Below are positions 8,105 to 63,692 of a stretch of DNA of 64,000 bases, piece after piece; positions within the stretch are counted from its first letter, which is position 1; the number at the start of each line of letters is the position of its first letter. Made by a program: the position numbers and the translations under genes. The stretch covers positions 32,103,862-32,167,861 of the forward strand of contig CM049307.1 in the NCBI GenBank assembly GCA_026874595.1. Reading direction: 5' to 3'. The notes under the pieces were generated by a model. That model worked only from the letters and a program-made list of their open reading frames with translations, ran no database searches and was not told the DNA's origin. The stretch comes from Sipunculus nudus (taxonomy: Eukaryota > Annelida > Sipuncula > Golfingiida > Sipunculidae).

Positions 8105-8385
8105 ACAAGTGACCCAAGGGTCATGATGCTCAGCTGACTAGGAAGACATTCACAAAAGGAATTTTATCATCTGAATACCAAATTTTGAAGGTGGTATCCC
8201 AATTCAATTGAAGCAAAGCTCAGAGGATATGGGTAACAGAGACCTTATTTAAGGTTTCCAATGAGATTTTCCATTGACCTCCCTGGATGTCAAGTAAAAA
8301 GTTTCTAGGTCCAATAGTTACAATTAGTGCCCTGTTAACAGAAGACTGCATCATTGAAGGTCCCAAATAGTAAAAATGAAAATAA
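8105..8385 (+). mobile_element. family 1B 5' fragment (HINE/Helentron-like)
   Basis: Begins ACAAGTGACCCAAGGGTCAT with GCTCAGCTGA close behind, the same 5' end as the element at 61779. It continues with 'atatgggtaacagagacc', 'tccaatgagattttccatt', 'ctaggtccaatagttacaa' and 'gccctgttaacag', matching the 340-bp monomers at 61.9-63.6 kb. It is cut off by family 1A copy 1 at 8386. Confidence 0.7.
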
Positions 8386-11005
8386 ACAAGGGACCTATGG
8401 GTCACAGCGCTCAGCTGATATATATGATAAAAAAATATGATTTAGAAATGAGGCACATGCTGCTTTAACATGGTAATAAAAATAAGCTGTATTATGAGTT
8501 GTTGTTGTTGTTTAGCTTATGTATGATTTTGATAGTACCTTTGGAGACAGGAAAGAGGATTAATTTCATTTATTTCTTTAACAAATTGAGTGGGATTGTC
8601 ACACAGATTTTGACTTGGTCATATAACTTATAAGCAGAACATATAATATAAGAGTTTAACTATTTATTAAAAAAATTACAAATATTGTCCCAAATATAAT
8701 TTATATTAAAAATAATAAGAGAATCATATGATTTTTTAAAATAAAATATAACTGAAATGATTATTAAAATAATATTAAAGAATATATTCATGAATGCATT
8801 CATTAATACATTTTGTAAGTATTTGCACTGGTATTCATACACTTTCATTTTTACCTGAATTCCCATTCTTATGAAAGAAATTTTATAATGGAGTACATAT
8901 TCATATTCGTGTTTAAATACAATTGCAAAGTATTCGCACCATGTCTGGTATTTATTCAGTTTTCACCAAACAATGATGTTGAGAATCCAGAATAAACAAA
9001 ATTCACACATTTAAATAATGATCATAAATAACAGGTTTTATGGCTTTTATTTATATTTAAAAAAATGTAATATATGCATTTTGGATTAATTTCACATCAT
9101 TGTATACACTAGACACAGTAGGAATCTAGATTAATATTATCAACTGTATCTTTGTCTATCATTAATTTCCTTCATATGATCCCTAATGATTAGTAATGAA
9201 TAATATGTTTCATTTTTTATCATTAAAATTGAACTGAAAAATACCATAGGTGACTGCATGGTGTTATTTGGAATACATGACATTCTATCCATCGATACAA
9301 GATTCTTATATCATCGGTAACTGCAAGTTAATTTCCTGTTATTATCAACTAACAAATTCCTTTTCTATTTTTCTTTAATTTGTTATTAAAAATCAATGAA
9401 AATTTATTAATTTATTGTTTATTGTTATGTTGTTGGTTAAAACTACTAGATGAGTTGGGTTGGACACCTGGATCAACTGTGGCTGGCCATTATATAATTA
9501 GCTGCCTGGGGGCCCCAGTTAATGCCTCGCCTCAAGCATGCATAATTTGCTGAAAGTTCAACAAGGTCAACATACAGGTGACTCAAGAGGTGCTACAGAG
9601 AGCCAAGGTCTGACATGGTCTCATAATAACATTAATAAAAGCTACAATTTTTGGCCAATTTCTTTCAGCTTTTCAAACTAAAAAGCTGAAATCTTTATGT
9701 GTGCATGATATGAAAATTATATCAACAGTGCTCACAGGAAACAAACATGCCAACGTCGAAGTTGGGCAAAATTTAAGGTACTAATTTTATATTTATACTA
9801 ATAACTTATAAAATTTGAAAAATTCAGAATTAATTTTGGGTATTCAATTGAATCTTGATTAAATAATGTTACATCCCTGACAAAAAATCTCTAGCTTCAG
9901 CAATCCTCTTGTTAAGGGAGTAAATATATTTCTTGCTTTTTAAAAAGTGCATTATGTTTGGGCCCATAACTTAAAACAATTACGCAATACTGACATCATT
10001 TCTGGCATGTGCATAGAGAATATATAGAAAAATATGTATATTATATATGATTAAAGTCAGATCAGTGGTTTTGATATTAGGCAGTCTTGAAGTGTAACAA
10101 TGGGTTTTTCATGGAAAAATGAAGTTTTTCATTAATATCTCGAAGGTATTAAGTCCTAGTGACCAAATTCTTGACATGGTAGGGGATTTTTGAGACATCT
10201 AATTGGATGCCAAATTTTAGGAACTGAGAGCTGAAGCTGGGGAGCTGAGCACTTGCAAACTGCATGACACTAGCTTGATGTTAACAATACGTTACATGGT
10301 GCTTGAAAACTTGAATAAAATCTACAGTTTTTGATCAACTGGTTTCAAATTGTTGGTGTTTACAGACAAAATGCTAAAAAAAAACATGCTGTGAAAATTA
10401 AATCCACAGTACTTACAGGAAAAAAACGTGCCATGGTCAAAGTTGGGCAAAATTTAAGGTACCAATTTTTTATTTTTGTTAATATTTTAGAAAAATTTAA
10501 AAGATTTTGATCTAATTTTGGGTATACAATTTAATTTTGATTAATTAAAGTTATATTACTGGAAAAAAAGTTTATAGCTTTAACATATTTTGTGTTAAGT
10601 GATCAAATACCTTTCCTGATTTTTTACACAATGCATTATGTTTGGGCCCATAACTTTTTAAATTTATACAATACAGACATAATTTCTGGCATGTACATAG
10701 GAACTATATAGAGATATAATTATGGTAAATATGAGGAAAAACAGATGAGTGGTTTTGATATTAGGCAGTCCTGAAGTGTAAAAATAGGTTTTTAATAAAA
10801 AATTGAGGTTTTTCCTTAATTTCTCAAAGGAACGAAGTCGCAAAGACCCAGTTTTCGGCTTGGTAGGAGATCTTGGGGACATCTAACATTATGCCGAATT
10901 TTGGATTCCTAGGTCTTACGGTTTTAAAACGTGCCTACGGACGGACGGACAGACGGACAATGGACCACGACTATAGCTCAGATGACTTATAGTCAGCTGA
11001 GCTAA
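8386..11005 (+). mobile_element. family 1A element, copy 1 (2.6 kb, non-coding)
   Basis: Starts ACAAGGGACCTATGGGTCAC, in which GACC..GGGTC is a near-palindrome, followed by GCTCAGCTG. It ends with a GGACGGACGGACAGACGG stretch, then a hairpin formed by TAGCTCAGATGACT and AGTCAGCTGAGCTA (one mismatch, 3-nt loop), finishing GCTAA. The subterminal GCTCAGCTG and its inverse form short inverted repeats. Copies at 38414-40808 and 47534-50148 share both ends and most of the interior. The open frames conserved among copies (for example minus 10664-10882) reflect repeat identity; none shows a protein domain. The architecture resembles non-autonomous Helentron (HINE) elements; the class assignment is inference. 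Confidence 0.8.
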
Positions 11006-16174: not shown

Positions 16175-17771
16175 TAAAATGAGTCAAGGTTTCTAACCAA
16201 GAACATCTTACATGTTTATGTAAATCTGTTCAAACAAAACTCCAAGATAACAACGTATGGTTTTGCTAGCACTGTATACCTGTAGTGGTATAAATATAAG
16301 ATGCAATCATACATCATTCTATGAAATGCAATTGTGATGTGACATCACTGAGCATAATGACATCAGACCCATGTTGGCAAACAAAACATTCTTATGGGTC
16401 AGTCAGGACTCAGGATACAGCGTCATAATGGTTGTTGTTGTTTGTGCAAATGAGAACATCTAGGGCAGGACCATCATAATGTGCAGGGTTGGTGTTTCAA
16501 GACATAGTTTTATTATTTCTTATAATTTCAAGATCCTAGTTGATGGTCTATCATGGCCTCATACAACCAAGGACAAACACCCTCCCTCTTCACACCAACT
16601 AGCACAGATGATAAGTAAGTGCTTATGGCAGGAACTGGATGTAAAATCATGCATGAGGATTAAGAGGAAAACAATGACTGATAATCAATTATTAATCAAC
16701 ATATTATGCACCTTGCTTCTATATTTCAATAAAATATGTTAACATAAGTCAGTATTGACATCAGATTTGATAAATTATATGGTCATTGTAATCATACACA
16801 TCACCAGGTGTCATCCAATTTAAATGTTAACAATGACAAACTGTAGCAAATTTTGAACTGATAACAGAACAAACTATGGTCATGCTAAAAGAAAATTACT
16901 TGTCATCTTCTCATAGTTATAATTTAATGGTGTTCTCTTTTTTTCTCAGATAATAATACTTCTTTGCATATACACACATAATCATTTGTGATAAACTCTA
17001 CCAAGATGCAACCAATCAAATTAACTAGAAAAAAAAATGACCAATCATCTATGTAACAAATAATCAGCATTACACTAGAAATAAGATATTTTCAAAGAAA
17101 TCCAACTTCTGCCGGGAGCCATATAATGCTGTAATGAACACGCAACTGTCACGGTTCAACTACCTTTCCCAGACCACCTCCAAAATAAAGCACCAAGTGA
17201 CACTTATCAGTGGACGTATTATAATGAAAAAGCCATGTCACAATGCTAGAGTATTCTTTGAATTAAACCAAAATTATGATGAACCAGATAACCTCCAAAA
17301 TTTAATTGACTGCTCATTGAATGTTATCTTAACCTTCCACAGTATTTTTAAAAAAATTGGTTCAGTACAGGTTTTTTTGTGCAAACATGCTGACAGACAA
17401 ACCAAGGGTGATGTATAATACCTCTCACTACCTTATCATCTACACCATTTCAGTCCATGCTGTTAAAGTAATAAAATGCACCCTTGGGGGTGTGGTTTGC
17501 ACAATCAACATGTTCCTGTAATATATTTACAAGCCTATTCAACAAGACATTACGTAAAATTCTTTTTATGCCCTCTATCATTTCCTGCACTTATTGCCTG
17601 GTAACTGTAAGTTTTTTGGTTAGAATCCATACTGGAGGGAATAGAAGACGTGGATTTTACAAGGTTTTACACTATCTTATTACATTACCTGCAAGTGTAA
17701 GTAAATATGGTACAGTTTTGTCTTGTTGACTTATCTACTGGATTAAACTGTACTTTCTCATGGAAGAATTA
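16175..17771. other. no gene supported; one weak plus-strand exon-like segment
   Basis: At about 16529-16612 a pyrimidine-rich 'ttatttcttataatttcaag' acceptor and an 'ataa|gtaagtgc' donor flank a 28-codon open stretch, with no domain and no partner exon. The plus frame at 17134-17418 (94 codons) is open but unrecognised. Neither is called a gene. Confidence 0.3.
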
Positions 17772-32110: not shown

Positions 32111-34212
32111 CTTTATTGAACCCTGACAGGTTTATTTCTTCTAGTTCTTAAACTACTCATAGGGCCACCATTTTGCACAGACATTAAAACCCGGATTTAG
32201 AATGTCAAAATCAAGGGCATACTGCTGATGTACATAAATGAAGAATAGCAGGCAGGATAAAGTGTAGGATGTAGTCTAGTGGTTAAAATGCATGCTGAAC
32301 AGCAGAGCAGAAGGTCCAGGCCTTAACTTGGAAGACAAAACAGCAAAGCTAATTTAAACTTCAGAATGTGTTAATTACATTGTCTATATTCTAGATTAAT
32401 TCAAGCCCAATGATCATAAAACCTGGCATTCAGAAGGCTTCATAGATAACACCATATAATAAATATCATATGGTTACTTCCATCTTCATTCAGACTACCT
32501 ACAGGGCATGGACTTATTCTTAATTTATATAAAATGCTAGCACATTATGATTGGGTTAATTTAAGGCACATCCAAATTTGTAAGATAAATTAACAGCACA
32601 ACAAAGATTAAAGAATGTTTTTTTTTTTCCAGTGATTCTGTCTCATATGTGACATTTTTTCTCAGGTTTTCTTGTGGTAATGGTGTTGATGTATCACTGA
32701 CATCTGGATCTACTGGTCCCATTAGGTCACGTGGTCCTATTTGTTTACATGACCTGGGTCAGGCCTGAAGGAGAGTAGTAAATGGTCTGGCTTTCTCTGG
32801 TTGGCTCTAGCCATCATGTGCTGGAGCATCAAAAACACCGCATTGTTTGATTTTTAAGTATGTTAAGCATAATTTCCAATAAAATTGACAGTATTGGTCA
32901 TTTTTTTTTAAATCTATGGCCAATCAAAGAGATGTTGTCCAAATGCTTGTTTGGGACTGATTGGTGGGGTATTTTGGGCTTCACTGCATTCGGGCCAGGA
33001 TGGTTAAAAAAGGAGATACACAAGCCCCCTTTTTTTTGGTCTAGTTTGACTGAAGAAACAACAAATTCTCAGGTAAAAAAAAGTTTAATATCAGAATTTA
33101 TTTTGAAAATTATTTAAAAGAGGCCCAAACCTCAGGTGTTTTATAGATGTTATATAGGGAAAATCAAAACAGCCACGTGTCCATTAGCTCAGGATGAATC
33201 CTGTTTAGTGGCAGGGGCCTGCATCCCTTCTGCACACTTGGTGACATCCGGAGGTAGTCATGCCCGACTCTGTTTACTTTTTCTCATTTCCTCATATATC
33301 TGATGTTCTCTCTCATTCCACTTGGTGACCCCTGTGAGGTTGGATTAGATACCTGATAACTTTATTGCCTGGTCTGGAAGCTGGGTTTAGATGGCACATA
33401 ATCCCTCATATTTCTGTTAAAGCTTGCTTTAGGGTAGTTCAGTCTTGGCTCCTTGATCATGGTTCTCCTCCACAGGGTGTTATGACAGGCCTCTTTCCTC
33501 CTGAGACATTAGTGGCCAGCAATGTCTGCTGGCTCTTCACATAAGGCTGAAGCTGAGTCCAGAGCTTAAGCTAGGGCTGGTAAGATAGGTGTGTTGACAC
33601 ACAGGTTACCAGCTAGGTTACCCAAGCTCCATCAAATTACCTTACAACAATATTTTGTCCATCACTGGTTGGTGCAAAATGACAGAATGCAAATATGAAG
33701 GTCATCCACATACAGCCCAAGAAAAAATCATAATCAAACTTATAAGCTCTGCATAAAAAGTCAGCTGAGCTTTAATTAAAAACTTATTACCTGACTGACA
33801 CATTAGGATAATATCAAAGAGAATTTTTTTCCAGATGCTCAAAGGTTTTAACAAAATGGCAAACCAAATATAGGTTACTGTGACCCAGTTTCAGGATTCT
33901 AAGGAGATTTCACCAGAACCTGTCAGGATGGCAAATTAAAATTCCCTTCTTGGCAATATTATCATAATGCCATGAGGTCTGCCTACTTCATGCAATGTAC
34001 ATTGCTCTGGTGACATATGTTCCTGGCACTGATGTCATTTAAGTTATTTCACTGGTTCCTAAAAAAGATGTAAACACACAGAATAGTTGGGATCTTAAAT
34101 AGCCTAGTGGCAAAGTATTTGACAAGATATTGGAATCAAGTTAATGATTTCACATCCCTATTGATGTGAACTTTCATACTTTTCTGGGTATTCATTCACA
34201 GCATGTATATTC

Positions 34213-34610
34213 TGTCACAGGACAAACTCCGATCCAGTAGAATCGTCGATCCTACTAGGACAAAGTCCGATCGGACTTTCTACTAGGAGAAACTCCGATC
34301 AGACTTTCTACTAGTAGGATCAGCGATTCTACTAGGACAAACTCCGATCATAGCCTCTACTAGGACAAACTCCGATCAACCAGAAACCACAACATAATTA
34401 GACTTTCTACTAGTAGAATCGGCGATTCTACTAGGACAAACTCCGATCGTAGTATCTACTGGGACAAACTCTGATCGTAGTCTCTACTAGGACAATCTCC
34501 GATTGTAGTCTCTACAAGGAGAAACTTACCATAATTTACCTAATTTCTGAAACCTGAGATTAAAAATGAATAAAACACAGTAATATTTTAACCAAATGTT
34601 TTATTTATAT
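34213..34610 (+). repeat. left arm of foldback element
   Basis: Eight recognisable AGGACAAACTCCGATC-like units (variants AGGAGAAACTCC, GGGACAAACTCTG, AGGACAATCTCCGATT) end in an AT-rich part, ACCAAATGTTTTATTTAT, which pairs with the start of the right arm. Confidence 0.88.
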
Positions 34611-35519
34611 ATTTGAAAAAATAAAGAAAAATAAATACAAGCACATATGATAAAACCCAATATCCTACGATTATATATACAACTCACAGACATACATCTT
34701 AATGTTTCATTCAAACATATTCATACAACTTTATTTGATAAAAAAAATTACAAATAAGCACAAGTACATGTAAGCACAAACTGTTATCTTCTTGTATATA
34801 TGTAAAATCCCTGAATATTGATCTAAAATATTTCATTCACATCCTGTCTTAAATTCACAGCAAAAAAATGCAATATATACATACAACAGCACTTATGCTA
34901 CTCAATGAAAAAGCCATTGATACAGAATGTAGGTTTCATATAGAACATACAAGTTTATGTGATAAAAAATACAAATAAAGGCACAAGCACATATTAGCAC
35001 AAACTGTTATCTACAATTCCTGAACATAGGTATAACTTATTTCTTAAAATAAAAGAGAAAAATGCAATATATACATCGGACAGTACTTATATTTATCAAT
35101 TAAAAAACCATTTATACAGATTGTGTGTATTTTCATACAGAACTTTTTCAAAAGACTCACTCACAGAAATACAGTTCCCTCGGTAATGTGCAAGTCCGTC
35201 CATAAAAATATCAGTCCTAAGGTTATGTCAACTTCCTCAAAGCTCAAAATCTTTTTTGACAAACACTGAATGTTTCTGGGTGGCACTTTGCAAGGAGCTA
35301 TCATATAAAATACAGCGTAATAACAAGAATTCTAGAAGTATAGTACATAAAACAATGAATAAATATAATGGTTATACAAAAAAAAACCTAACATGTCAAC
35401 CATTACCATATACCAGTGTTTAACCCCACATTAAAAACCAAATAAACAACCGTTGTCTGTATACTGTATGAAATAATCATGATATACTTTAGTCTTTTAG
35501 AAAGTCATATTTTGTATAT

Positions 35520-35912
35520 TCATAAATAAAACATTTGGTTACCATATTACTCTGTTCAAATTATTCATAATCTCAGGTTTCATAAATTAGACCATTATGG
35601 TAAGTTTGTCCTAGTCAAGACTACAATCAGAGTTTGTCCTAGTAGAAGCTCTGATCCAACTAGTACATTTATATATGATTGGAGTTTGTCCTAGTAGAAT
35701 CGCCAATTCTACTAGTAGAAAGTCTAATTATGTTGTAGTTTCTGGTTGATCGGAGTTTGTCCTAGTAGAGGCTATGATCGGAGTTTGTCCTAGTAGAATC
35801 GCCGATCCTACTAGTAGAAAGTCTGATCGGAGTTTCTCCTAGTAGAAAGTCTGATCGGACTTTGTCCTAGTATGATCGACGATTCTACTGGATCGGAGTT
35901 TGTCCTGTGACA
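35520..35912 (-). repeat. right arm of foldback element
   Basis: Inverse of the left arm, from 'cataaataaaacatttggtt' to TGTCCTGTGACA. It differs by small substitutions and by a 'ccaactagtacatttatata' stretch near 35655-35675, so the arms are close but not identical. Confidence 0.88.
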
Positions 35913-36716
35913 TATATATAGTCATTTTATCAGGGAGTGCAACCGCATAAAACAAACTGCTTGCCCCAACTGCATTCCGGAACTGCATAAATGGAATTTT
36001 AGTTTCTGAACCCATTCAACCTAAGGCTTCAGTTCAGCAGGACTGAAATTAATATGCATTAAAAAGTTCACATGCACCTACCAAGCTCTATAAATTCACT
36101 GACCCTGACAAACTGTAAAATGCAATAACACTCAATGGATTCAGGTAGTGCCTATTCAATCAAGACAAGGACTGCTTTAAGATGGTATACATTTTGATCA
36201 CTAAGTTTTATATATGGGCAAGATGCCTGTTTCTATAATGAATCCGGGAGAGAGATTTATGCCCTGGTTTTACACTTCATTAACTGTCCCTTGTGCATAG
36301 GCACTGGTTGTTTTTGCTAGCCTTTTTTCCTGTGTTAGGAATGATGATTACTTTCACTTTCAGTTTATGGTAACTAACTGGGGTGCAGACTGAACAATAA
36401 AGTTATAAAACTGGTTTGCTCACATATACGACATCATACTTTACATATTCACTCCATACCATGACCAATGGGTCATGATGCCCAGCTAACAAGCATGAAC
36501 TGTAAAAGTAGGGGTGAACAATCACAATGAAGAGAACCTTTTTTTGCAAATTTGTTAAAACTTTGAAGTGTGACAGAAATACATGATCACTAAGCAAAGG
36601 ACATTATCTGAATTGAGGGTAAAGTGAAAATTAAGATATTTTTGATAATACTCTGGCATTACTGTTATTTGTCAGACTGACTCAGTTTCAGAAAAACCTT
36701 TATATAAGTGACGGTG
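35913..36716. other. no gene; family 1 5'-terminus scrap near 36460
   Basis: 'ATGACCAATGGGTCATGATG' followed by CCCAGCTAAC (about 36461-36490) is a family 1-type 5' end with no partner 3' end nearby. The minus frame at 36403-36597 runs through it. Confidence 0.5.
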
Positions 36717-37565: not shown

Positions 37566-38413
37566 TACCTAACCCCTTAAGTGTGACCGTCCTCGGCACA
37601 CTAATCAGAATTACTAGTCAGCATAGGTACATTAGAAACACCTGTTCTATCTTCATGGGATATCGGATCATATCTGAATAAATTATCTGAATAACTTAAA
37701 TGAAGAATTAAGCAAAACCACAGTGAAACTAAAAGCTCATTACTTATGACAGAAATGATCCCTGAAATAAAAGGAAGCATGCACAAAATATCCATATCTA
37801 AAATTTACATAACTTATAAATACAAATATTATCTTATCAGCAAATATTATGCCATTTAGCATTAATATGTGTCCTGACTGGGTACTATACTGTAAATTGT
37901 TCGTAAACTCTATATTAAAACTTTAAAACTTGGAAATGTGAAATATTGTGAACCTGTCTTAACATAAAATCAAACTATCGAAATATACAGAGGCAGCCTA
38001 TACAAGCAATTTATGCAGTCATGTGTCTGAAGTCAGATCTAGCGATACAGCTGTGGATAATCCTAGGCTCCTGCAAGCACTATATATTACAACTGAATTA
38101 CATCTAACATCAAACTTTGAAGACAACATAGTAACCTTTATTCCAAAACGCCTATCAAATGCACAGTTCAACTTATAACCATTAAATATATCCTATCCAT
38201 CACAACTGTTTATACTGACCAACCAGCTTCATATAGGCCCTCTTTTTCACAAGAACTGTTAATATGCTCAAAACCAATAAACCATTCAAGTTTATCATAA
38301 CTATAAAAGCCCAAACAGCCAAATATATATCCATTATATATCCTAAAGGTATACCAGAAATAATTTATCAAAACCCGATTAAATTATGAAGCTTAAAGCT
38401 TATATAAACAAAA
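37566..38413 (-). other. LTR element 3' internal segment, non-coding
   Basis: Between the 3' LTR and the nested family 1A copy. It holds the purine-rich tract next to the LTR (plus 37567-37580) and a 64-codon minus frame (37795-37601) without a recognised domain. Confidence 0.5.
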
Positions 38414-40808
38414 ACAAGGGACCTATGGGTCACGACGCTCAGCTGTTATATATGATAAAAAAATATTATTTAGAAATGAGGCACATGCTGGTTTTGTGTG
38501 GTAATAAATATAAGCTGTATTATGAGTTGTTGTTGTTTAGCTTATGTATGATTTTGATAGTACCTTTGGAGACAGGGAAGAGGATTGATTTCATTTATTT
38601 TATTAACAAATGGAGTACTACTGTCACACAGATTTTGACTTGGCCATATAACTTATAAGCAGAACATATAATATAAGAGTTTAACTATTTATTAAAAAAA
38701 TTACAAATATTGTCCCAAATATAATTTTTATTAAAAATAATAAGAGAATCATATGATTTTTTAAAATGAAATATAACTGATATGATTATTAAAATAATAT
38801 TAAAGAATATATTCATGAATGCATTCATGAATACATTTTGAAAGTATTTGCACGAGTATTCATATACTTTCATTTTTACCTGAATTCCCATTCTTTATGC
38901 AAGAAATTTTATAATGGAGTACATAATCATATTCTTATTTAAATACAATTACAAAGTATTCGCACCATGTCTGGTATTTATTCAGTTTTCACCAAACAAT
39001 GATGTTGAGAATCCAGAATATACAAAATTCACACATTTAAATAATGATCATAAGTACCTGGTTTTATGGCTTTTATTTATATTAAAAAATAACTGTAAAA
39101 AATTCATTTTGGACTAATTTCACATCAATGTACACGCTAGACACAGTAGGAATCTAGATTAATATTATCAACTGCATCTTTGTCTATCATTAATTTCCTT
39201 CATATAATCCTTAATGATTAGTTATGAATAATATGATTTTCTTCTTTATCATTAAAAATGAACTGAAAAATGCCTTAGGTGACTGCATGGTGTTATTTGG
39301 AATATGTGACATTCTACCCATCGATACAAGATTCTTATATCATCAGTAACTGCAAGTTAATTTCCTGTTATTATAAACTAACAAATTCCTTTTCTATTTT
39401 TCTTTAATTTGTTATTAAAAACCATTAAAAATTTATAAATTTAAAAGCTGAAAAAAAAAGCTGAAATCCTAATGTGTGCATAATATGAAAATTATATCAA
39501 CAGTGCTCACGGGAAACAAATGTGCCATGGTCACAGTTGGGCAAAATTTAAGGTACTAATTTTATATTTATACTAATAACTTATAAAATTTGAAAAATTC
39601 AGAACTAATTTTGGGTATTCAATTGAATCTTGATTAAATAATGTTACATCCCTGACAAAAAAGATCTCTAGCTTCAGCAATGCCCTTGTTAAGGGAGTAA
39701 ATATATTTCTTGATTTTTTACAAAGTGCATTATGTTTGGGCCCATAACTTAAAAAAAAAAATACACAATACTGACATCATTTCTGGCATGTGCATAGTGA
39801 ATGTATAGAAAAATATGTATATTATATATGATCAAAGTCAGATCAGTGGTTTTGATATTAGGCAGTCTTAAAGTGTAACATTGGGTTTTTAATGGAAAAA
39901 TGAAGTTTTTCATTGATATCTCGAAGGAATTAAGTCCTAGTGACCAAATTCTTAGCATGGTAGGGGATTTTGGAGAAATCTAACTGTATGCCAAATTTAA
40001 GGAACTTAGAGCTGAAGCTCGGGAGCTGAGCTCTAGCAAACTGCATAACACTAGCAATATGTGACATGGTGCTTGAAAACTTGAATAAAATCTACAGTTT
40101 TTGATCAACTGGTTTCAAATTTTTGGTGTTAACAGTTGAAATGCTAACAAAAACATGCTGTGAAAATTAAATCCACAGCAGTTACAGCAAAAAAACGTGC
40201 CATGGTCAAAGTTGGGCAAAATTTAAGGTACCTATTTTTTATTTTTGCTAATATTTTTAAAAATTTAAAAGATTTTGATCTAATTTTGGGTATACAATTT
40301 AATTTTGATTAATAAAAGTAATATTACTGGAAAAAAGTGCTTAGCTTTAACAAGTTTTGTGTTAAGTGATAAAATTTCTTTCCTGATTATTTACAAAATG
40401 CATTATGTTTGGGCCCATAACTTTTTTAAATTAAATAATACAGACCTAATTTCTGGCATGTACATAGGAATTATATAGAGGATTATTTATAGGAAATATG
40501 AGGAAAAACAGATGAGTGGTTTTGATATTAGGCAGTCCTAAAGTGTGAAAATAGGTTTTTAATAAAAAATTGAGGTTTTTCCTTAATTTCTCAAAGGAAT
40601 GAAGTCGCAAAGACCCAGTTTTCGGCTTGGTAGGAGATCTTGGGGACATCTAACATTATGCTGAATTTTGGATTCCTAGGTCTTACGGTTTCAAAACGTG
40701 CCACATCTACGGACGGACGGACGGACGGACGGAATGACGGACAGACGGACGGACGACGGACAATGGACCACGACTATAGCTCAGATGACTTATAGTCAGC
40801 TGAGCTAA
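38414..40808 (+). mobile_element. family 1A element, copy 2 (2.4 kb, internally deleted)
   Basis: Same ends as copies 1 and 3: ACAAGGGACCTATGGGTCAC at the start, GACGG microsatellite (40709-40757), hairpin and GCTAA at the end. The first ~280 bp look identical to copy 3. It lacks a block of roughly 230-260 bp present in copy 3 at about 48550-48800 (the 'gagttgggttggacacctgg' region). It lies inside the LTR element, opposite to the LTR element's strand. Confidence 0.85.
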
Positions 40809-47365: not shown

Positions 47366-47533
47366 CATACTTTTATGTTTCATGTGTTTGAGTCCATATG
47401 ACTGTATGAAGTTGATGACCCCCAGTGTGACTGCAGGCCAGCTTTGATTCCAAGGAATTGCACAGTGCAGGAAGCTCACCACACAAACACACACAAACCT
47501 TAATTTCTAACATCAACCGTAATTCCTTGTGAA

Positions 47534-50148
47534 ACAAGGGACCTATGGGTCACGACGCTCAGCTGTTATATATGATAAAAAAATATTATTTAGAAATGAG
47601 GCACATGCTGGTTTTGTGTGGTAATAAATATAAGCTGTATTATGAGTTGTTGTTGTTTAGCTTATGTATGATTTTGATAGTACCTTTGGAGACAGGGAAG
47701 AGGATTGATTTCATTTATTTTATTAACAAATGGAGTACTACTGTCACACAGATTTTGACTTGGCCATATAACTTATAAGCAGAACATATAATATAAGAGT
47801 TTAACTATTTATTAAAAAAATTACAAATATTGTCCCAAATATAATTTTAATTAAAAATAATAAGAGAATCATATGATTTTTTAAAATGAAATATAACTGA
47901 TATGATTATTAAAATAATATTACAGAATATATTCATGAATGCATTCATGAATACATTTTGAAAGTATTTGCACGAGTATTCATATACTTTCATTTTTACC
48001 TGAATTCCCATTCTTTATGCAAGAAATTTTATAATGGAGTACATAATCATATTCGTATTTAAATACAATTACAAAGTATTCGCACCATGTCTGGTATTTA
48101 TTCAGTTTTCACCAAACAAAGATGTTGAGAATCCAGAATATACAAAATTCACACATTTAAATAATGATCATAAGTACCTGGTTTTATGGCCTTTATTTAT
48201 ATTAAAAAATAACTGTAAAAATTCATTTTGGACTAATTTCACATCAATGTACACACTAGACACAGTAGGAATCTAGATTAATATTATCAACTGCATCTTT
48301 GTCTATCATTAATTTCCTTCATATAATCCCTAATGATTAGTAATGAATAATATGATTTACTTCTTTATCATTAAAATTGAACTGAAAAATGCAATAGGTG
48401 ACTGCATGGCGTTATTTGGAATATGTGACATTCTACCCATCAATACAAGATTCTTATATCATCAGTAACTGCAAGTTAATTTTCTGTTATTATAAACTAA
48501 CAAATTCCTTTTCTATTTTTCTTTAATTTGTTATTAAAAACCAATAAAAGTTTATTAATTTATTGTTTATTGTTATGTTGTTGGTTAAAACTACTAGATG
48601 AGTTGGGTTGGACACCTGGATCAACTGTGGCTGGCCATAACCTGCCTGGATTCTCGCCTCAAGCGTGCATAATTTGATGAAAGGTCAACAAGGTCAACAA
48701 AGTGGTGACTCAAGAGGGGCTGGAGAGAGCCAAAGTCTGACAGGGTCTCATAAAAAACATTATTAAAAGCTACAATATTTGGCCAATTTCTTTCAGCTTT
48801 CTAAACTAAAAAGCTGAAATCCTTATGTGTGCATGATATGAAAATTATATCAACAGTGCTCACGGGAAACAAACGTGCCATGGTCACAGTTGGGCAAAAT
48901 TTAAGGTACTAATTTTATATTTATGCTAATAACTTATAAAATTTGAAAAATTCAGAACTAATTTTGGGTATTCAATTGAATCTTGATTAAATAATGTTAC
49001 ATCCCTGACAAAAAAATCTCTAGCTTCAGCAATGCCCTTGTTAAGGGAGTAAATATATTTCTTGATTTTTTACAAAGTGCATTATGTTTGGGCCCATAAC
49101 TTAAAACAATTACGCAATACTGACATCATTCTGGCATGTGCATATAGAATGAAAAATATGTATATTATTTATGATTAAAGTCAGATCAGTGGTTTTGATA
49201 TTAGGCAGTCTTGAAGTGTAACAATGGGTTTTTAATGGAAAAATGAAGTTTTTCATTAATATCTTGAAGGTATTAAGTCCTAGTGACCAAATTCTTGGCA
49301 TGGTAGGGGATTTTTGGGAAATCCAACTGTATGCCAAATTTAAGGAACTTAGAGCTGAAGCTCGGGAGCTGAGCTCTAGCAAACTGCATAACACTAGCAA
49401 TATGTGACATGGTGCTTGAAAACTTGAATAAAATCTACCGTTTTTGATCAACTGGTTTCAAATTTTTGGTGTTAACAGTTGAAATGCTAACAAAAACATG
49501 CTGTGAAAATTAAATCCACAGCGGTTACAGCAAAAAAACGTGCCATGGTCAAAGTTGGGCAAAATTTAAGGTACCAATTTTTTATTTTTGCTAATATTTT
49601 AAAAAATTTAAAAGATTTTGATCTTATTTTGGGTATACAATTTAATTTTGATTAATAAAAGTTATATTACTGGAAAAAAAGTGCTTAGCTTTAACAAGTT
49701 TTGTGTTAAGTGATAAAATTTCTTTCCTGATTATTTACAAAATGCATTATGTTTGGGCCCATAACTTTTTTAAATTATATAATACAGACCTAATTTTTGG
49801 CATGTACATAGGAATTATATAGAGGATTATTTATAGGAAATATGAGGAAAAACAGATGAGTGGTTTTGATATTAGGCAGTCCTGAAGTGTGAAAATAGGT
49901 TTTTAATAAAAAATTGAGGTTTTTCCTTAATTTCTCAAAGGAATGAAGTCGCAAAGACCCAGTTTTCGGCTTGGTAGGAGATCTTGGGGACATCTAACAT
50001 TATGCTGAATTTTGGATTCCTAGGTCTTACGGTTTCAAAACGTGCCACATCTACGGACGGACGGACGGACGGACGGACGGACAGACGGACGGACGACGGA
50101 CAATGGACCACGACTATAGCTCAGATGACTTATAGTCAGCTGAGCTAA
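47534..50148 (+). mobile_element. family 1A element, copy 3 (2.6 kb)
   Basis: Same ends as copies 1 and 2. The most regular microsatellite of the three (six or more GGAC units from about 50054) precedes the 3' hairpin TAGCTCAGATGACT/AGTCAGCTGAGCTA. It retains the block deleted from copy 2. The 77-codon plus frame at 47545-47778 is identical in copy 2, which reflects recent duplication rather than coding constraint. It starts about 170 bp after the poly(A) signal of the spliced transcript. Confidence 0.87.
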
Positions 50149-55190: not shown

Positions 55191-56647
55191 AGCCTTCTTT
55201 TGTATTAAGGTCTAATGATCGTCAAACAACCTTGTTTTTATTTAGTTTTAAAATTCACATTTAAATGAATTTTAGCCACAATGATATATACATATTTGGA
55301 ATCCTTTGAATATCCTCTGTTAGATGAGATATATATGAACATTGTCTCAGAAATTTGCTTTGAAGATTTTAAACTTTAAATAATTTATTTCCTATTTTTT
55401 TAACGTGATATATCTCACATTTTGCAAAAAACTGTCATGGTGAAAAAGATGAAATTTTAACACAAAATGACATCTCAGGAACTGTCAAACAGAAGTAGGC
55501 GGACCTTACTGCTCTAAGGGGCTGGTCATTGATAATAAGGTCATGGGCCACCACGCCCTGACATGGGTCAGAATGTGTGAAGTGACTGATTAGCAACAAT
55601 TACTCTGAGCAAACATTTGAACTGCCAATGCATCCCCCCACTCACAATCATTTATGGAGAATGTCATGCTATTAAAATAGTGCTAACTCATAATATCAGC
55701 AGCTGTACTTTTTTCTTTTCTTTTATATTGTACATGCATGTATACAAAAATTCTTTGGATGAACTGGTTGACAGAATGTCTTCAACAGAAAATTAGCTAT
55801 TTAACCTAAAACTGCAGGACATTTTCCCTAAATCTTCTTTAAAAACTAATTTAGTTAGAAAATAAGCAAAAATATATGAATGGATAAATTAATTAAAAAA
55901 TCTTCTGTACTATCTTCACCTATATGAGATCTGGGTGTGAATTCCAGGACACGGTAGCTTTCATGGGAGACACCTACTCACACAGCGAGGAAATAATTTT
56001 CTGTAATCTGTGGTCTACACGGTACATTTCGTGAATCGCTATCATTAAATATCAAGAAAGCAGTTTGTGGAATCAATGGATCCAACATCACTGAACTTCC
56101 CAAATACTACCCTGATGGCATTCTTTGAACTCAGCAATTTTTAATTGGGTCACTCAAATATTAATCTTACACTTAGCATAGCATGAATATTTATCAGAAT
56201 TTAAATATAAAAACAATTTTGAATCAATAACATTTAAATTTGGGTGTAGGAGTTATATATGAGAGAATCTAATCAAATGTCACAAAATAAAATTTCTTTA
56301 TATCACATGCTTGAAAATATGAGATATCAATAAAAAATTATCCTTTTCAGGGAATCAAAGTGAAAAAAATCTTTCAGGAAAAACATTTTTCATGTGTCTG
56401 TGAAAAGTGAAACTAGAAACCCTGTTCTTGTCAGGTTATACATTGGTCATAACCAGAAAGGGTCTAGCACTTATATTATAAATAAGTTTGAACCAGAAGT
56501 CAGAAGTCAGAATTAAAATCCAAATCCAAAATGGTGCCTTATTAAATGGTTCACTGAACTCATGAGGAGCCATTTATGCTTATACATATATAAAGATGGC
56601 CAAGATATTTGTATTGGAAAACTGGAAAGTGCCAACAAGTTAAAACT
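55191..56647. other. unique DNA with ambiguous exon-like pieces
   Basis: At 55982-56038 and 55510-55557 the minus strand has acceptor/donor-like pairs around open frames. However, overlapping frames of the first (one of them open to about 56080) look equally protein-like and end in stops, so I do not call exons. Confidence 0.3.
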
Positions 56648-56832
56648 AACAAGGCCTACAGGCCTAATGCAAACCTGTGCATTGGGAAATACACCAGGTA
56701 TAATGCTTCAATGCTGGACCATTACCTTTCATGTATATGAACAATGTAAGTAATAACATTTTGAATAAGAAACAATTACACAAACATCACTGCTGAAATT
56801 CTGGCATGGGTGCACACAACACAAAAATGATT

Positions 56833-57200
56833 GTAGCTGGCACCACCAGTCTTGTATACAACGAAGCTATCAGAGATATATACATATGCCCAATACTAGA
56901 CTGATATATCAAACCCCTCCTGAGAAATAAGCAGGGATACACACTTTGCAAAAATTACTGTAGGTGGCACCACCAGTCTTGTATACGACAAAGCTATTCA
57001 ATATGTATAAATATGCCCAATATCAGGCTGATATATCAAATTCCTCTGTAGAAATAAGCAGGCACATACACTGTGCAAAAGTCATTGTAGGTGGCGACAT
57101 CTGTCTTGTGAAAGAGAAAGCCATCAAAGACACATAGACAGGTCAAAATATCAGGCCAATACATCAAACTTACCTTGAGTCTGATGCATGGGGCTGACCA
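56833..57200. repeat. 127-bp tandem repeat, 3 copies
   Basis: Units start GTAG(G/C)TGGC at 56833, 56960 and 57087, exactly 127 bp apart, each opening with GTAGGTGGCACCACCAGTCT or a variant and containing 'atatgcccaatat...ctgatatatcaaa'. Lies inside the family 2 composite. Confidence 0.88.
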
Positions 57201-57249
57201 GGCTTAGGTGAGAAAAGCAGTTGCCCCAAGTGAACTGTAACAAATTGCT

Positions 57250-57600
57250 GACTCAGGCTACTGCACTGAGTGAACTCATGACCTGCACCTGGCTAGACTG
57301 AGTGAACTTTTGACCTGTACCTGGCTGCACTGAGTGAACTCTTGACCTGTTGCATAATATTAAACAGCTGGCAGTCTGCAAAAGCTATAAATAGATCCAG
57401 ATTGAACTTTGGTGCCAAATCTGATGCAGTTGGCAGTCTGCCAATGCTATAAATAGAATGCAGCTACTGCACCAAGTGAACTCCTGACCTATGTCTGGCT
57501 GCACTGAGTGAACTCTTGACCTGTTGCCTAATCTAAAACAGTTGACAGTCTGCCAAAGCTATAAATAGATCCAGACTGACCTTTGGTCTGTTGCCAAATC
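57250..57600. repeat. diverged tandem repeat with 'tgaactcttgacctgt' and 'gctataaatagatccag' phrases
   Basis: Three passes through 'ctgcactgagtgaactc', 'gacctgttgc', 'cagtctgccaaagctataaa' (near 57370, 57432 and 57548) with unequal spacing. Inside family 2. Confidence 0.7.
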
Positions 57601-57671
57601 TGAAATTATAGCCACACCATTGCATAAGCTCACAGATTGGCTCCACATGCAGCCCTGAGGGGCATGACACA

Positions 57672-57785
57672 CATGAGGTGATCACATGATACTCATGAGG
57701 TGATCACTTGCTACCTATGAGGTGATCACATGGTGCCCATGAGGTGTTCACATGTCACCCATGAGGTGATGACATGCCTTGTGCT
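57672..57785. repeat. 22-23-bp tandem repeat, 5 copies
   Basis: CATGAGGTGATCACATG-like units start near 57672, 57694, 57716, 57739 and 57762. Most contain the palindrome TGATCA within GGTGATCAC. Confidence 0.88.
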
Positions 57786-60661
57786 TGGCTGCACTGATTG
57801 AACCTCTGACCTATATCTATCTGCGATGAATGAACTCTTGATCTGTTGCCAAATCTGGCAGTTGGCAGTTTCTCAACCTATTTAAAGATACAGACACAAT
57901 CTTGGCCTGTTGGTAAATTTGTTTACAAATACTGAAAGACTTTGGCTAAAATGCTTTTTTTTTCAAGCTGACATATTCATAAACTTTTTATCAAAATATC
58001 TAGAATAATAAAAGTTGCAGTCCTTTCATTGTTAAAGGTCCAATAATTCTGCCAAAAATCATTCAAGTAAACTTGAACAAAGGCCACCTAAGAATAATTT
58101 TTGTGCAATGTTACAGAAGTTATAATTGAAACAATAATTTTTTAGAAGAACACTATTGCAGTCCTCAGTTTGAAATAGACATAATAATGGCCATAAGACC
58201 AACTTAAGTTTTTCATGACTCAACCAAAAATCAACAAACTCAATCTGTTCTGATATGATTGAAAGAACCATGTCCTAGGATAATACTTTTGAAAAATTGA
58301 ACAATTCAACTTGACAGTTTCATCATAAACATTTTAAGCTGAAAGAGGCTAAAATTATGAGGTTTTTGCCCAAAAAAATAGGTCAATGTAGGTGGCACCA
58401 CAAAATCTGCAATTTTAAATGTATGTCATGTGACCAACATTTGCACAATACTTGTGTAATGCTAGCTTCTGCCATTTCTGAGATTACTATGTCAGTATGC
58501 TTACTTGGCCAAATGACTAAGTTCAAATTCGTGTAACTCCACTAAAATTTATCAAATGCAAACCATTTGAACAAACATGAGAGGGCTTGCCTCTGGGTTC
58601 ATTTCTGTAAAATATTGAACAATTTGGCAGGACCGTTTACAAGAAGAAGACTTTTAAAGTTTTGTCAGCTTTTTCCCTATAATATCCCTAAGTAAATGCA
58701 GATAGCATAAAAATAAGCTGGCTTCCACAATGTTTGATATGTGACAGATTATTGCATAAAATCAGGGGATGGTAGCTCCTGCTATTCCTGAGAAATTATG
58801 GGTTCATGTACAGATGACCAATGACCCCTGTACAAAAAAGGTTGATGCAGGTTGCGCCGCCAATACCTGAATTTCATATCTGACTCATGTGACCAACACT
58901 GGCATAAAATTGGTGATGATAGCTCTGGCTGTTTCTGAGACTGTCATTTTAGTAAGCTTTTTTGGACAGATGACTAAGTTAAACTTCCTGTAACTCATTC
59001 AAAATTCACCGAACTTGAACCATTTGAACAAACTTGAGAGAGATGGTATAAAAGATTATTTCTGTGAAATATTGAACAATTTGGCTTAACCGTTTCGGCG
59101 GGGAAAATTTTTTAAGGGTTTTAGCTTTTTCTCTATAAAATCTAAGAAAATGCAGAGTTTTTCAGATGGCTAATTTTTTGCATTTAATTTCATGATGTTA
59201 GCTCCAGTCATTTTCGAGATATTATGGGTTTACATTCAGACAACGGATGCCGCCACACCATCGCATTAGCTCAGAGGTTCGCAAAAAATTACTACAAATG
59301 CATATTGAATGCAAAATTATAATACAAATATATCTCACTGATGGCAAAATCTTGAATTAAGTTGAGCTTGGAGACTAATTATTTATAATCCATGTACAGC
59401 CATCTTTATATACCCACAGAGAGCTGCATACCTGTGATTGTAAACATTGTCTTAGCATGAGGAATATCTAAAATCATAAATCTACATTTTTAAAAGCTTT
59501 TAAAAAACATACTTGTCAATATTAACCATAGATAACCTGAAATCTAAATGTCTAGAGGCATTCTGTAACAGATGCTGATAAACTGGTGCCAGGCTAGAAG
59601 TATCTGCTTCACATAGCTCATATATATGGTAAAATGTCTCAATTAAATCTTAATGATTCAGCCAAAATTCATTCTTTTGAACCATAAAAGACACTTATTA
59701 TAAGAATTATTCAGGAGATTATTCTTGCAAAGTATCAAAAAAATTTGCCTCAGTGACACCAGTCAAAAAAAGTTTTGCAGGTTAATAACTCATATTTGAA
59801 AATACAGCAAAATGGCTAAGTTAAGCTTCCTGTAACACAGCCAAAAATCACTGAACCTAAACTATTTGAACAAACTTGAATTATCAACATCTAAGGATTA
59901 TTAATGTGTGAGATTTAAGAATTTGGCCCAGTGGTTTTTGTTGAGAAGATCTTTGTAGCCACTGAGCTAAAATAGGCTGTTATGGCATATGACTAAATTC
60001 AGCTTCCCATAACTCAGCTAAAAGTCACTAAACCGAGACCATTTGGACAAACTTCAGAAAGCACTACCCTAGGATCATTTCTGTGCGATATTAAACAATT
60101 AGGCCATATGATTTCAAAGAAGAAGTTTTTTGTGGCTGTCAGTATGATATGGGCACTGATGACCCCTGTACAAAAAAGGCTGATGCTCAATTTCAGATAT
60201 GACTCATGTGACCAACACTGGCATTAAATTTGGTGATGAAAGCTCTAGCCGAGATTGTAATTTTAGAATGCTTTTTTGGACAGCTGACTAAGTTCAACTT
60301 CTTGTAACTAGGCCAAAAATCACTGAACTTAAACCATTCAAACAAACTTGAGAGAGATTGTTCCATGAATCATTTCTTTGAAATATTTGACAATATGGCT
60401 GAACAATTTCAGAGAAGATTTTTAAAGCTTTTTTAGATTTTTACCTATAAAATCTAAGAAAATGCAGTTATAGCCAAAAAAAGCAAAATCTGACAGAGTT
60501 TTTTAGATGACTAATTTTTAGCAAAAAATTTTGTGATGCTAACTCTTGCCATTTTCAAGATAGTATGGGTTAATGTACAGACAAAGGACAACAGATGCCG
60601 GCTGACAGATGCCAGACACCGGACGACGCCACACCATCCCATAAGCTCACAGGTTTGCTAA

Positions 60662-61778: not shown

Positions 61779-63692
61779 ACAAGTGACCAATGGGTCATGA
61801 CACTCAGCTGACTGGGAATAGATTTGCAAAAGGAAATATTATCATCTGAATGGTAGTATATACTCATTCAACTGAAGCATCAAACAGATTATCCAACAGG
61901 CCAAGATTGTGTTTGTATTTATATATCTCAAAAATAGAGAAAAAATGCTTAAAAATACAAGTGGCTCCACAAGTCTGAAGAAACTAATAAAAAGACTTAA
62001 TGGTCAATATGCATGCAAAAAATCATGGTGATCTCTGCATTAGTTGTTCAGATACTTCAGAATTTGTATCAAATTTTCCATTATTCCGAACTGTACTTTG
62101 GAGTGCCATTGCTCAAAGGATATGGGTAACAGAGACCTAATTTCAGGTTTCCATGGAGACTTTTCATGGGCCTCCCTGTGTGTCAAGAATGAAGATTCTA
62201 GGTCAAGTTGTTACAATTTGTGCCTTGTAAACAGATGACGGCATCCTTAAAGGTCTCAAAAATAAAGAAAAAAATTTGAAAAATTGAATAAAATATAGGT
62301 GGCACCACCAGTCTGCAGAAACTGATGAAACACTCCATAAAAAATATCCATCCAAAGTATCATGGTGATCTCTGCATTAGTTGTTCAGATACTTCAGCTT
62401 TTGTATCAAATTGTTCATTATTCTGAGGGTTACTTAGGAGTCCTATAGCTTGAAGGATATGGGAAACAGAGACCTAATTTCAGGTTTCCACAGACACTTT
62501 TCATGGGCCTCCTTGCATGACCAGAATGAAGATTCTAGGTCCAGTTGTTATGATTTGTACTCTGTTGACAGATAACCACATCTTTAAAGGTCTCAAAAAT
62601 AGAGGAAAAAATTCATAAAAATTTGAAAAAATAGAGGTGGCACACCCAGTCTGCAGAAACTGATGGAACACCTCATGATCAATATGTATGCCAAAAATCA
62701 TGACCATCAGTGTTGTAGTTATTGAGAAACTGCAGTTTTTGTATCAAATTTTTCATCATTCTTAGGGGTATTTTGGGAGCCATACAGCTTAAAGGATATG
62801 GGTAACAGAGACCTAATTTCAGTTTTCCATGGAGACTTGTCATGGGTCTCCCTGTGTGTCAAGAATGAAGATTCTAGGTCCAGTCTATACGATTTGTGCC
62901 CTGTTAACAGATTTTCATATCTTTAAAGGTCGCAAAAGTAGAGAAAAAAAATTTGTAAAAAAAAACGAACAAATACACGTGGTGCCATCAGTCTGCAGAA
63001 ACTGATGAAACATTCCATGATCAATATCCATGCAAACAATAATGGTGTTCTCTGCATTAGTTGTTCAGATACTTCAGCTTTTGTATCAAATTTTCACATT
63101 AATTCCGAGCTGTACTTTGGAGTGTCATTGCTCAAAGGATATGGGTAACAGAGGTCTAATTTCAGGTTTCCATGGAGACTTTTCATGGGTCTCCCTGTGT
63201 GTCAAGAATGAAGATTCTAGGTCCAGTCGTTACGATTAATTACCCTGTTGACAGATAACAACATCCTTAAAGGTCTCATAAATAGAGAAAAAAATTCATA
63301 AAAAAATAAAAAAATACAGGTGGCGCCACCAGTCTGCAGAAACTGATGAAACATCTCATGATCAATATGTATGCCAAAAATCATGACTATCAGTGATGTA
63401 GTTAATGAGATATTGAAGTTTTTGTATGAAATTTTAGACTATTCTGGGGGGTACTTTGGGGTCCAATAGCTCAAAGGATATGGGTAACAGAGACCTAATT
63501 TCTGGTTTCCAAGGAGATTTTTCATGGACCTCTCAGAATATTCAGTTACAAGATTGTAAGTCCAGGGATACCATTTGTGCCAGGTTAACGGACAGACAGA
63601 CAGACGGACAGACGGACAGACAGACGGAAGGACGGACGACGGACAAAGAGTGATCGCTATAGCTCAGCATGACTGAAAGTCAGCTGAGCTAA
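61779..63692 (+). mobile_element. family 1B element with five ~340-bp monomers (1.9 kb)
   Basis: Starts ACAAGTGACCAATGGGTCAT, then CTCAGCTGACTGGG. Five monomers open with GGTGGCACCACCAGTCTGCA or variants near 61962, 62300, 62636, 62979 and 63318. Each contains 'gttgttcagatacttcagc', 'ggatatgggtaacagagacc', 'ggtttccatggagactttt' and 'gattctaggtccag'. A long GACAGACGGAC microsatellite (63590-63645) precedes TATAGCTCAGCATGACTGAA, then AGTCAGCTGAGCTAA. The plus frames at 62044, 63030 and 63456 share a peptide only because they read monomers in the same register. Non-coding. Confidence 0.85.

What the first reader, a model, noticed from the sequence alone, without database searches (positions are those of the whole stretch)
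34213..35912. Foldback element whose ~395-bp arms are arrays of one palindrome-rich motif
The arms are long, mutually inverted and built from about eight AGGACAAACTCCGATC units each, linked by CTACTAGTAG palindromes. The single strand could fold at several scales: whole arms, units within an arm, and self-complementary linkers. The centre encodes nothing. Foldback/Galileo-type elements have this general build, but I do not recognise this motif. The repeated unit is a natural candidate for a repeatedly bound transposase or host-factor site.
Basis: partly seen in the sequence, partly recalled or inferred. Interest (0 to 1): 0.78.

Follow-up and report, generated by a model that had tools for sequence, protein, structure and literature searches.

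The report
Jumping gene with ruler-spaced palindrome ends
This is a gene-less copy of a cut-and-paste jumping gene whose enzyme resembles the integrases of retroviruses, and its ends are rows of small palindromes whose spacing is shared, to the base pair in the best copies, by related families with largely different letters, which suggests that spacing and symmetry are what the enzyme reads.

Summary
Window 34213-35912 is one 1,700-bp element with inverted arms (97% alike over the outer 239 bp) holding eight (left) and seven (right) AGGACAAACTCCGATC-type units. It is not a lone locus: its 22-bp end occurs 211 times in the host genome at up to 1 mismatch (control 0), and 21 of 31 end pairs examined have identical 4-bp flanks (mostly TATA). 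Four copies with the same arms hold broken remains of a transposase gene, which the window copy lacks at one point. The enzyme type (H2C2 finger plus rve core, read in sister families), TGTCA ends, 4-bp duplications and RTATAY target fit Ginger2 transposons, not Galileo or Mutator. So it is a non-autonomous, Ginger2-like element of foldback build. Unexpected: sister families with largely different arm letters (40-59% alike) share a ruler. In the best arms of three families CYRG junctions lie at bases 22, 43, 71, 99, 120 and 148, and the 21- and 28-bp units between are palindromes kept by changes on both sides (20 of 57 pairs; at most 5 in registers shifted by up to 6). Many arms have lost the register. 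I infer phased arrays of dimeric transposase sites; no function was tested. My searches listed no paper describing this.

The parts
34213..35912 (.). Whole non-autonomous element, 1,700 bp, ends TGTCACAGGACAAACTCC...GGAGTTTGTCCTGTGACA
   Evidence: Exact ends shared with complete copies elsewhere in the genome
34213..34535 (+). Left palindrome array; CYRG junctions start at 34234, 34255, 34283, 34311, 34332, 34360, 34380, 34410, 34431, 34459, 34487
   Evidence: positions 22, 43, 71, 99, 120, 148, 168, 198, 219, 247, 275 of the arm
35590..35912 (-). Right palindrome array, mirror of the left; same junction positions up to arm base 219
34236..34256 (.). Unit 1, 21-bp near-palindrome (arm bases 24-44)
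34257..34284 (.). Unit 2, 28-bp near-palindrome (arm bases 45-72)
34285..34312 (.). Unit 3, 28-bp near-palindrome (arm bases 73-100)
34313..34333 (.). Unit 4, 21-bp near-palindrome (arm bases 101-121)
34334..34361 (.). Unit 5, 28-bp unit, weaker palindrome (arm bases 122-149)
   Evidence: not in the count
34536..34620 (+). Inner, unit-free part of the left inverted repeat
   Evidence: pair I5 (34540-34620 with 35510-35590, 81%)
35510..35589 (-). Inner, unit-free part of the right inverted repeat
   Evidence: pair I5
35290..35292 (.). Point (element bases 1078-1080) where L035 and L037 carry the transposase gene region and the window copy does not
34206..34209 (.). Likely left copy of the duplicated target TATA, separated from the element by TTC (34210-34212)
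   Evidence: inferred, since this copy has no clean duplication
35913..35916 (.). Right copy of the target TATA

Best explanation
The element is a non-autonomous internal-deletion derivative of a DNA transposon whose transposase is of the retroviral-integrase type, of Ginger2 kind by the features tested. [quoted passage not shown] Inferred: a transposase made in trans bound the arms, cut at TGT/ACA and joined the element to staggered cuts 4 bp apart in RTATAY. Each arm is read as a phased array of palindromic sites, 21 and 28 bp apart, that binds transposase dimers side by side and so builds the end complex and gives specificity. The ruler (spacing and symmetry) would be under constraint, while the letters inside the palindromes change family by family with the protein that reads them.
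For: 211 ends at up to 1 mismatch, reversed control 0; 337 at up to 3, control 2. Of 31 end pairs of this family examined, 21 have identical 4-bp flanks; of 18 outside long TA repeats 11 do. Three can be read in one way only: CATA (L012), CATA (L013), TTTA (L022). The four best of 34 matches of the transposase C-terminus lie in copies with these arms: L034 with both ends, L036 with both (decayed), L035 and L037 with one end each. Sister-family ORFs hit rve 2.7e-10 and Integrase_H2C2 3.1e-9 (L040); the best solved relative is PFV integrase (4.5e-14). Ten of the 20 stop-free stretches of 95 codons or more in L038, L042 and L043 were scanned and gave no other Pfam family at E up to 0.01. Junctions at 22, 43, 71, 99, 120, 148 are shared by one chosen arm each of F1, F2 and F3; 20,000 shuffles of these arms gave at most 1 shared position. 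Register 0: 44, 48 and 40 of 57 pairs complementary in the three family consensuses, 20 pairs with changes on both sides; registers shifted by 1-6 at most 5. Tool count on 15 arms, units 1-4: 82.3% of cells paired against 29.7-50.8% when slid; covariation score 0.277 against 0.034-0.111; pairs with changes on both sides 14 against 0-4 slid and 9.7 in shuffles (1 of 500 as high).
Against: No binding or transposition was tested. The window copy has no clean duplication (ATTC against TATA), and 10 of 31 pairs differ in the 4 bp. All four F1 gene copies are broken or truncated. The first junction (base 23.5) is itself not symmetric (0.11). F4 (L046) keeps only part of the ruler (22, 42, 92, 120); F5 in L049 departs from it (left 22, 43, 68, 96, 117; right 22, 71, 92, 120, 141), though F5 copies in L009 and L010 fit at 43, 71, 99, 120, 148. 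Many arms have lost the register: all six junctions are kept by 25 of 57 distinct F1 arms, 1 of 5 F2 and 2 of 5 F3; one F2 arm (L038R) goes from 71 to 122. One of five measures (further pair types, 264 of 500 shuffles as high) is not above chance. One nested insertion (F5 in L009) fits a 2-bp at least as well as a 4-bp duplication. No tree with named Ginger2 proteins was possible.
Confidence: 0.8

Rival explanations
1. The arms work as folded single strands (cruciform or RNA hairpins): the structure itself, not a sequence, is recognised or processed, so letters drift while pairing is kept.
For: Changes on both sides of pairs across families. Strong folding: z -8.5, -11.3, -9.7 for one arm of each of three families. 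In F1 and F2 the first four units fold into one long hairpin centred near the junction at base 72.5.
Against: F3 takes another best fold. No Rfam match at gathering thresholds in 33500-36500, which only excludes described families. Palindromes bound by dimers on double-stranded DNA leave the same covariation, so nothing here favours folding over binding.
Confidence: 0.2
2. The palindromes are kept by mutation, not selection: template switching inside near-palindromes copies one half onto the other, and exchange between units and arms evens them out.
For: Repair of near-palindromes by template switching is an established mutational process (recalled, no call). Units within a family resemble each other and the two arms are 97% alike, so some evening-out occurs.
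Against: It does not by itself explain why junction positions are the same to the base in arms of families that are 40-59% alike outside junctions, when many arms show that indels occur.
Confidence: 0.2
3. A foldback of the Mutator or P (Galileo) kind, or two independent satellite arrays.
For: Long, internally repeated inverted arms around a variable centre, as in Galileo and Tetris (PMC3688188 abstract; PMC4079207 passages).
Against: 4-bp duplications instead of 8-10 bp (Tetris, PMC4079207 passages) or 7 bp (Galileo, recalled); arm-bearing relatives encode an integrase-type enzyme; 22 fetched copies share both exact ends.
Confidence: 0.02

Closest known systems
Ginger2/TDD DNA transposons (Bao et al. 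2010, PMC2836005)
   Same: TGTNR ends, 4-bp duplications in animals, RTATAY target, H2C2 finger plus DDE core, short non-autonomous derivatives (Ginger2-1N1_NV, 252 bp)
   Different: Inverted repeats in its Table 2 are 45-297 bp; the section and passages that I read describe no palindrome array, common spacing or foldback forms
Galileo (P superfamily foldback-like element, PMC3688188)
   Same: Long inverted arms with internal repeats; binding sites of its transposase were located there by footprinting and then by sequence, a precedent for the function proposed here
   Different: P-type transposase with a THAP domain; no cross-family spacing rule is mentioned in the abstract and outline that I saw
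Tetris and other Mutator-type foldbacks (PMC4079207, passages)
   Same: Foldback build, variable middle domain without coding capacity
   Different: 8-10 bp duplications, and no autonomous partner was found for Tetris
IS481EU, IS3EU/GingerRoot (PMC10045372, passages)
   Same: Same enzyme clan; NCBIfam's IS481 model matches the L040 ORF (7.4e-17, 61.8 bits, below its cut-off of 224); TGT...ACA ends and some 4-bp duplications in IS481EU
   Different: These groups lack the HHCC motif upstream of the core; IS3EU has TA..TA ends and usually 6-bp duplications; IS481EU was reported from parabasalids

Membership tests
Ginger2 | Ends follow TGTNR | tested here: met
   TGTCA in F1, F2, F3 (one F2 arm TGTCG); TGTCG in F4; F5 starts TGTCA in L009 and L010 but TATCA in L049 and without the first T in L041
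Ginger2 | 4-bp target duplication | tested here: met
   21 of 31 F1 pairs identical over 4 bp, 3 readable only as 4 bp; 10 of 31 not identical
Ginger2 | Target preference RTATAY | tested here: met
   TATA is the right flank in 25 of 31 and the left in 20 of 31 F1 pairs, 13 of the 31 pairs lying in long TA repeats; outer bases read by eye, for example G-TATA-C (L008), A-TATA-C (L024), G-TATA-T (L005, L027). No tally of the outer bases was made
Ginger2 | Transposase with H2C2 zinc finger and DDE (rve) core | tested here: met
   L040 and L042 ORFs hit both models above curated cut-offs; D-58-D-36-E spacing in L040. In the window's own family only broken pieces, without a significant Pfam hit of their own, tied to the sister families by protein search
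Ginger2 | Lacks GPY/F and YPYY motifs | tested here: inconclusive
   Not seen by eye in the L038, L039 and L040 ORFs; no profile was available
Ginger2 | Transposase groups with named Ginger2 proteins in a tree | not testable with these tools
   No named Ginger2 sequences were at hand
Ginger1 | CCGG or CCGT 4-bp duplications | tested here: not met
   AT-rich TATA, CATA, TTTA
Foldback build (not a superfamily) | Long, internally repeated inverted arms around a variable non-coding centre | tested here: met
   fetched copies run from 240 to 4,712 bp
Galileo / P superfamily | P-type transposase and longer duplications | tested here: not met
   Integrase-type enzyme in relatives, 4-bp duplications
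Mutator foldbacks | 8-10 bp duplications | tested here: not met
   No 7- or 8-bp match in 18 pairs outside long TA repeats; longer matches occur in the rows only within TA repeats
LTR retrotransposon or Polinton | Reverse transcriptase or polymerase genes beside the integrase | tested here: not met
   10 of 20 stop-free stretches of L038, L042 and L043 scanned: only H2C2 and rve hits at E up to 0.01

The most novel reading that the evidence does not exclude
In this transposon lineage the end signal is a geometry more than a sequence: a fixed ladder of dyads (centres 10.5 or 14 bp apart) that the transposase lineage has gone on reading while most of the letters changed, with each family's letters serving as a private key that stops cross-mobilisation. 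In the strongest form the folded palindromes themselves are recognised.
Probability: 0.25. Interest if true: 0.85.

Novelty: new variant of a known kind. Interest (0 to 1): 0.6.

Why it matters
It ties foldback architecture, linked in the papers seen here to Mutator and P elements, to the retroviral-integrase-like transposons, and it offers sister families in one genome in which spacing and symmetry are kept while much of the sequence is not. That makes directly testable how a transposase and the sites it reads change together, and why some transposons carry long repeated arms at all.

Tried and rejected
Chance: the ruler-shaped symmetry score over the whole window on both strands has mean 0.275 and sd 0.072; the best place outside the element reaches 0.59, against 0.84 for the left arm and 0.80 for the right. 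Two 16-mer look-alikes at 16570 and 16866 are chance, with no array around them.

Long copies as autonomous copies: L009-L016 (2.1-4.7 kb between the ends) have no stop-free stretch above 93 codons. L011 and L015 carry repeats that also occur elsewhere in this window, and L009/L010 carry a complete F5 element. The apparent 11.6-kb copy at C2:55529386 (L031/L032) proved to be a cluster of arm-bearing pieces.

A 2-bp TA duplication (Tc1/mariner): rejected because L012, L013 and L022 can be read only as 4 bp.

Lineage limits: of the 16 loci around more distant matches (L038-L053), arms were found in 9 (L038-L044, L046, L049), decayed F3-like arms by eye in L050, and no arms or long inverted repeats in 6 (L045, L047, L048, L051, L052, L053). 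So the ruler is shown only for part of the families found.

No RNA family matches 33500-36500. Pfam scans of L034 pieces gave no significant family; identification came through the sister families.

Dropped rows: one search used the 41 of 67 distinct arms that keep at least 5 of 6 junctions (34 F1, 2 F2, 5 F3), chosen by junctions and not by symmetry. One search used 15 of these 41 (the window's left arm stands for L001, the same copy), chosen by me to balance families; it covers units 1-4 only, because one arm has a gap in unit 5. The three arms's position test were chosen by me as well-kept examples of their families. L001 (the window copy) was left out.

Full report
What is there. Window 34213-35912 is a single element of 1,700 bp. 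Its arms are mutually inverted (232 of 239 bases identical at the outer ends) and hold eight (left) and seven (right) units within 2 mismatches of AGGACAAACTCCGATC. The longest stop-free stretch of the element is 78 codons, which 126 of 300 shuffles reach.

It is a mobile family. The 22-bp end TGTCACAGGACAAACTCCGATC occurs 103 + 108 times at up to 1 mismatch in the 1.43-Gb host genome, reversed control 0, and 174 + 163 times at up to 3 mismatches, control 2 + 0. From the places that one search lists (only the first ones are listed), I paired neighbouring ends and fetched 22 copies of 240 to 4,712 bp with both exact ends. Of 31 end pairs of this family over all held loci, 21 have identical 4-bp flanks; outside long TA repeats 11 of 18 do, and 7- or 8-bp matches are absent. 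L012 (CATA), L013 (CATA) and L022 (TTTA) can be read only as 4 bp. The window copy itself reads ATTC against TATA; its left flank is GTATA-TTC-element, so a TATA duplication with three extra bases is likely but not shown. L018 shows a similar flaw, with TGTC before the element.

Relatives with the gene. L034 has the same arms at both ends and stretches that read as an integrase-type protein in broken frames. Searching the genome with two of its pieces gave 52 and 34 matches. The four best C-terminal matches lie in L034, L036, L037 and L035, all copies with these arms; L034 and L036 have both ends, L035 and L037 one end each. L035 and L037 match the window element up to its base 1078 and again from base 1080, with the gene region between. 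L034 and L036 share the boundary at 1080 and resume at 1086 and 1006. The window copy is therefore most simply an internal deletion of the gene. All four gene copies are broken or truncated; I found no intact one, which does not show absence. Five copies with the window's structure are 91.7-95.0% like it, so the family moved within a moderate time; no rate was available to date it.

Which transposase. Sister-family ORFs give rve (2.7e-10) and Integrase_H2C2 (3.1e-9) in L040, both again in L042, and PFV integrase as the best solved relative of L040 (4.5e-14). NCBIfam's IS481 model matches below its cut-off. Ten of the 20 stop-free stretches of 95 codons or more in L038, L042 and L043 hold no other Pfam family at E up to 0.01. 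The C-terminus of L039 ends in a cysteine-rich stretch that resembles the TCR/CXC domain, but not significantly (0.15). Bao et al. 2010 (PMC2836005, passages and the Ginger2 section) describe Ginger2 by TGTNR ends, 4-bp duplications in animals, RTATAY targets, H2C2 plus DDE and no GPY/F. All but the last were tested here and met. A tree with named proteins was not possible, so I call it Ginger2-like.

The ruler. Loci around more distant transposase matches gave four sister families. Call them F1 (the window), F2 (L038, L043, L044), F3 (L039, L040, L042), F4 (L046) and F5 (L041, L049, and copies nested in L009 and L010). Their arm letters differ: outside TGTCA and junctions F1 is 40% like F2 and 48% like F3, and F2 is 59% like F3. 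They are thus diverged relatives, not unrelated sequences. Yet the CYRG junctions start at 22, 43, 71, 99, 120 and 148 in the left arms of the window (F1), L038 (F2) and L040 (F3), which I chose as well-kept examples; 20,000 shuffles of these three arms gave at most one shared position. F5 in L009 and L010 has 43, 71, 99, 120, 148; both F5 arms of L049 depart from this, and F4 keeps 22, 42, 92, 120. Many individual arms have lost the register: of 57 distinct F1 arms 25 keep all six junctions, of 5 F2 arms 1, of 5 F3 arms 2.

Symmetry. The units between junctions are 21 or 28 bp and palindromic. Mean symmetry over the three families is highest at 34, 58.5, 72.5, 86.5, 100.5 and 111, which are centres of units or junctions; the first junction, at 23.5, is not symmetric (0.11). 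In the three majority sequences 44, 48 and 40 of 57 possible pairs are complementary, with changes on both sides at 20 of 57; registers shifted by 1 to 6 give at most 5. On 15 arms and four units the tool count gives 82.3% of cells paired against at most 50.8% when slid, 14 pairs with changes on both sides against at most 4, and a covariation score of 0.277 against at most 0.111. Against shuffled partners 14 compares with a mean of 9.7, and the number of further pair types is not above shuffles (264 of 500). These arms are related sequences, so shuffle counts are not probabilities; the slid registers are the better control.

How it most likely works. Centres follow one another at 10.5 or 14 bp, that is 21- and 28-bp units, with 10.5 bp being one turn of B-DNA (general knowledge). 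I infer that transposase dimers sit side by side on these dyads and assemble the end complex, and that each family's letters track its own protein. Galileo gives a precedent: binding sites for its transposase lie in the tandem repeats of its arms (PMC3688188, abstract and outline). Two rivals remain open: recognition of folded strands, and a mutational origin by template switching. Covariation alone cannot separate them from dimer sites.

Novelty. Searches for Ginger2 with palindromes (1 paper), Tdd-4 inverted repeats (10 of 21 listed), foldback with palindromes and binding sites (15 of 36 listed) and Ginger with foldback (12 of 157 listed) showed no paper that, by title and abstract start, describes such arrays. 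Most of these were not opened, and Repbase entries and most subscription journals were not searchable. A bivalve survey (PMC10294476, passages) counts 98 Ginger elements; the passages give no arm detail. Foldbacks are said to be mostly Mutator with exceptions (PMC4079207, passages). I rate it a new variant of a known kind.

Noticed in passing
L009:666-4062 and L010:1056-3751: A complete element of sister family F5, with a 338-bp tandem array inside, is nested at the same place in two copies of the window's family, so the composite appears to have moved or been duplicated as a unit. Its flanks fit a 2- or a 4-bp duplication.
   Followed up: partly
window 8377-9000, 38413-39022, 47533-48142: Three copies of a repeat of at least 610 bp (90-92% like a stretch inside L015) holding AACAAGGGACCTATGGGTCA; the right flanks go on alike, so the repeat is longer, and the last two may belong to a larger duplication.
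   Followed up: no
window 56635-59877: Repeat segments with 127-, 32- and 22-bp tandem arrays that recur inverted inside L011.
   Followed up: no
window 61951-63532: 339-bp tandem array with a GGTGGCACCACC palindrome, possibly related to the 338-bp array (GGTGGCGCCACC) inside L009 and L010.
   Followed up: no
L051:883-4230 and L052:1712-5065: Two copies 98.9% alike over 3.35 kb around distant integrase-like matches, without inverted ends found: another, recent kind of element or duplication.
   Followed up: no
L026, L028 (G000:C1:59986974-59987216, G000:C2:62092925-62093164): Minimal copies of 243 and 240 bp made of little more than one arm with both exact ends, so about 240 bp may suffice for mobility.
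   Followed up: partly
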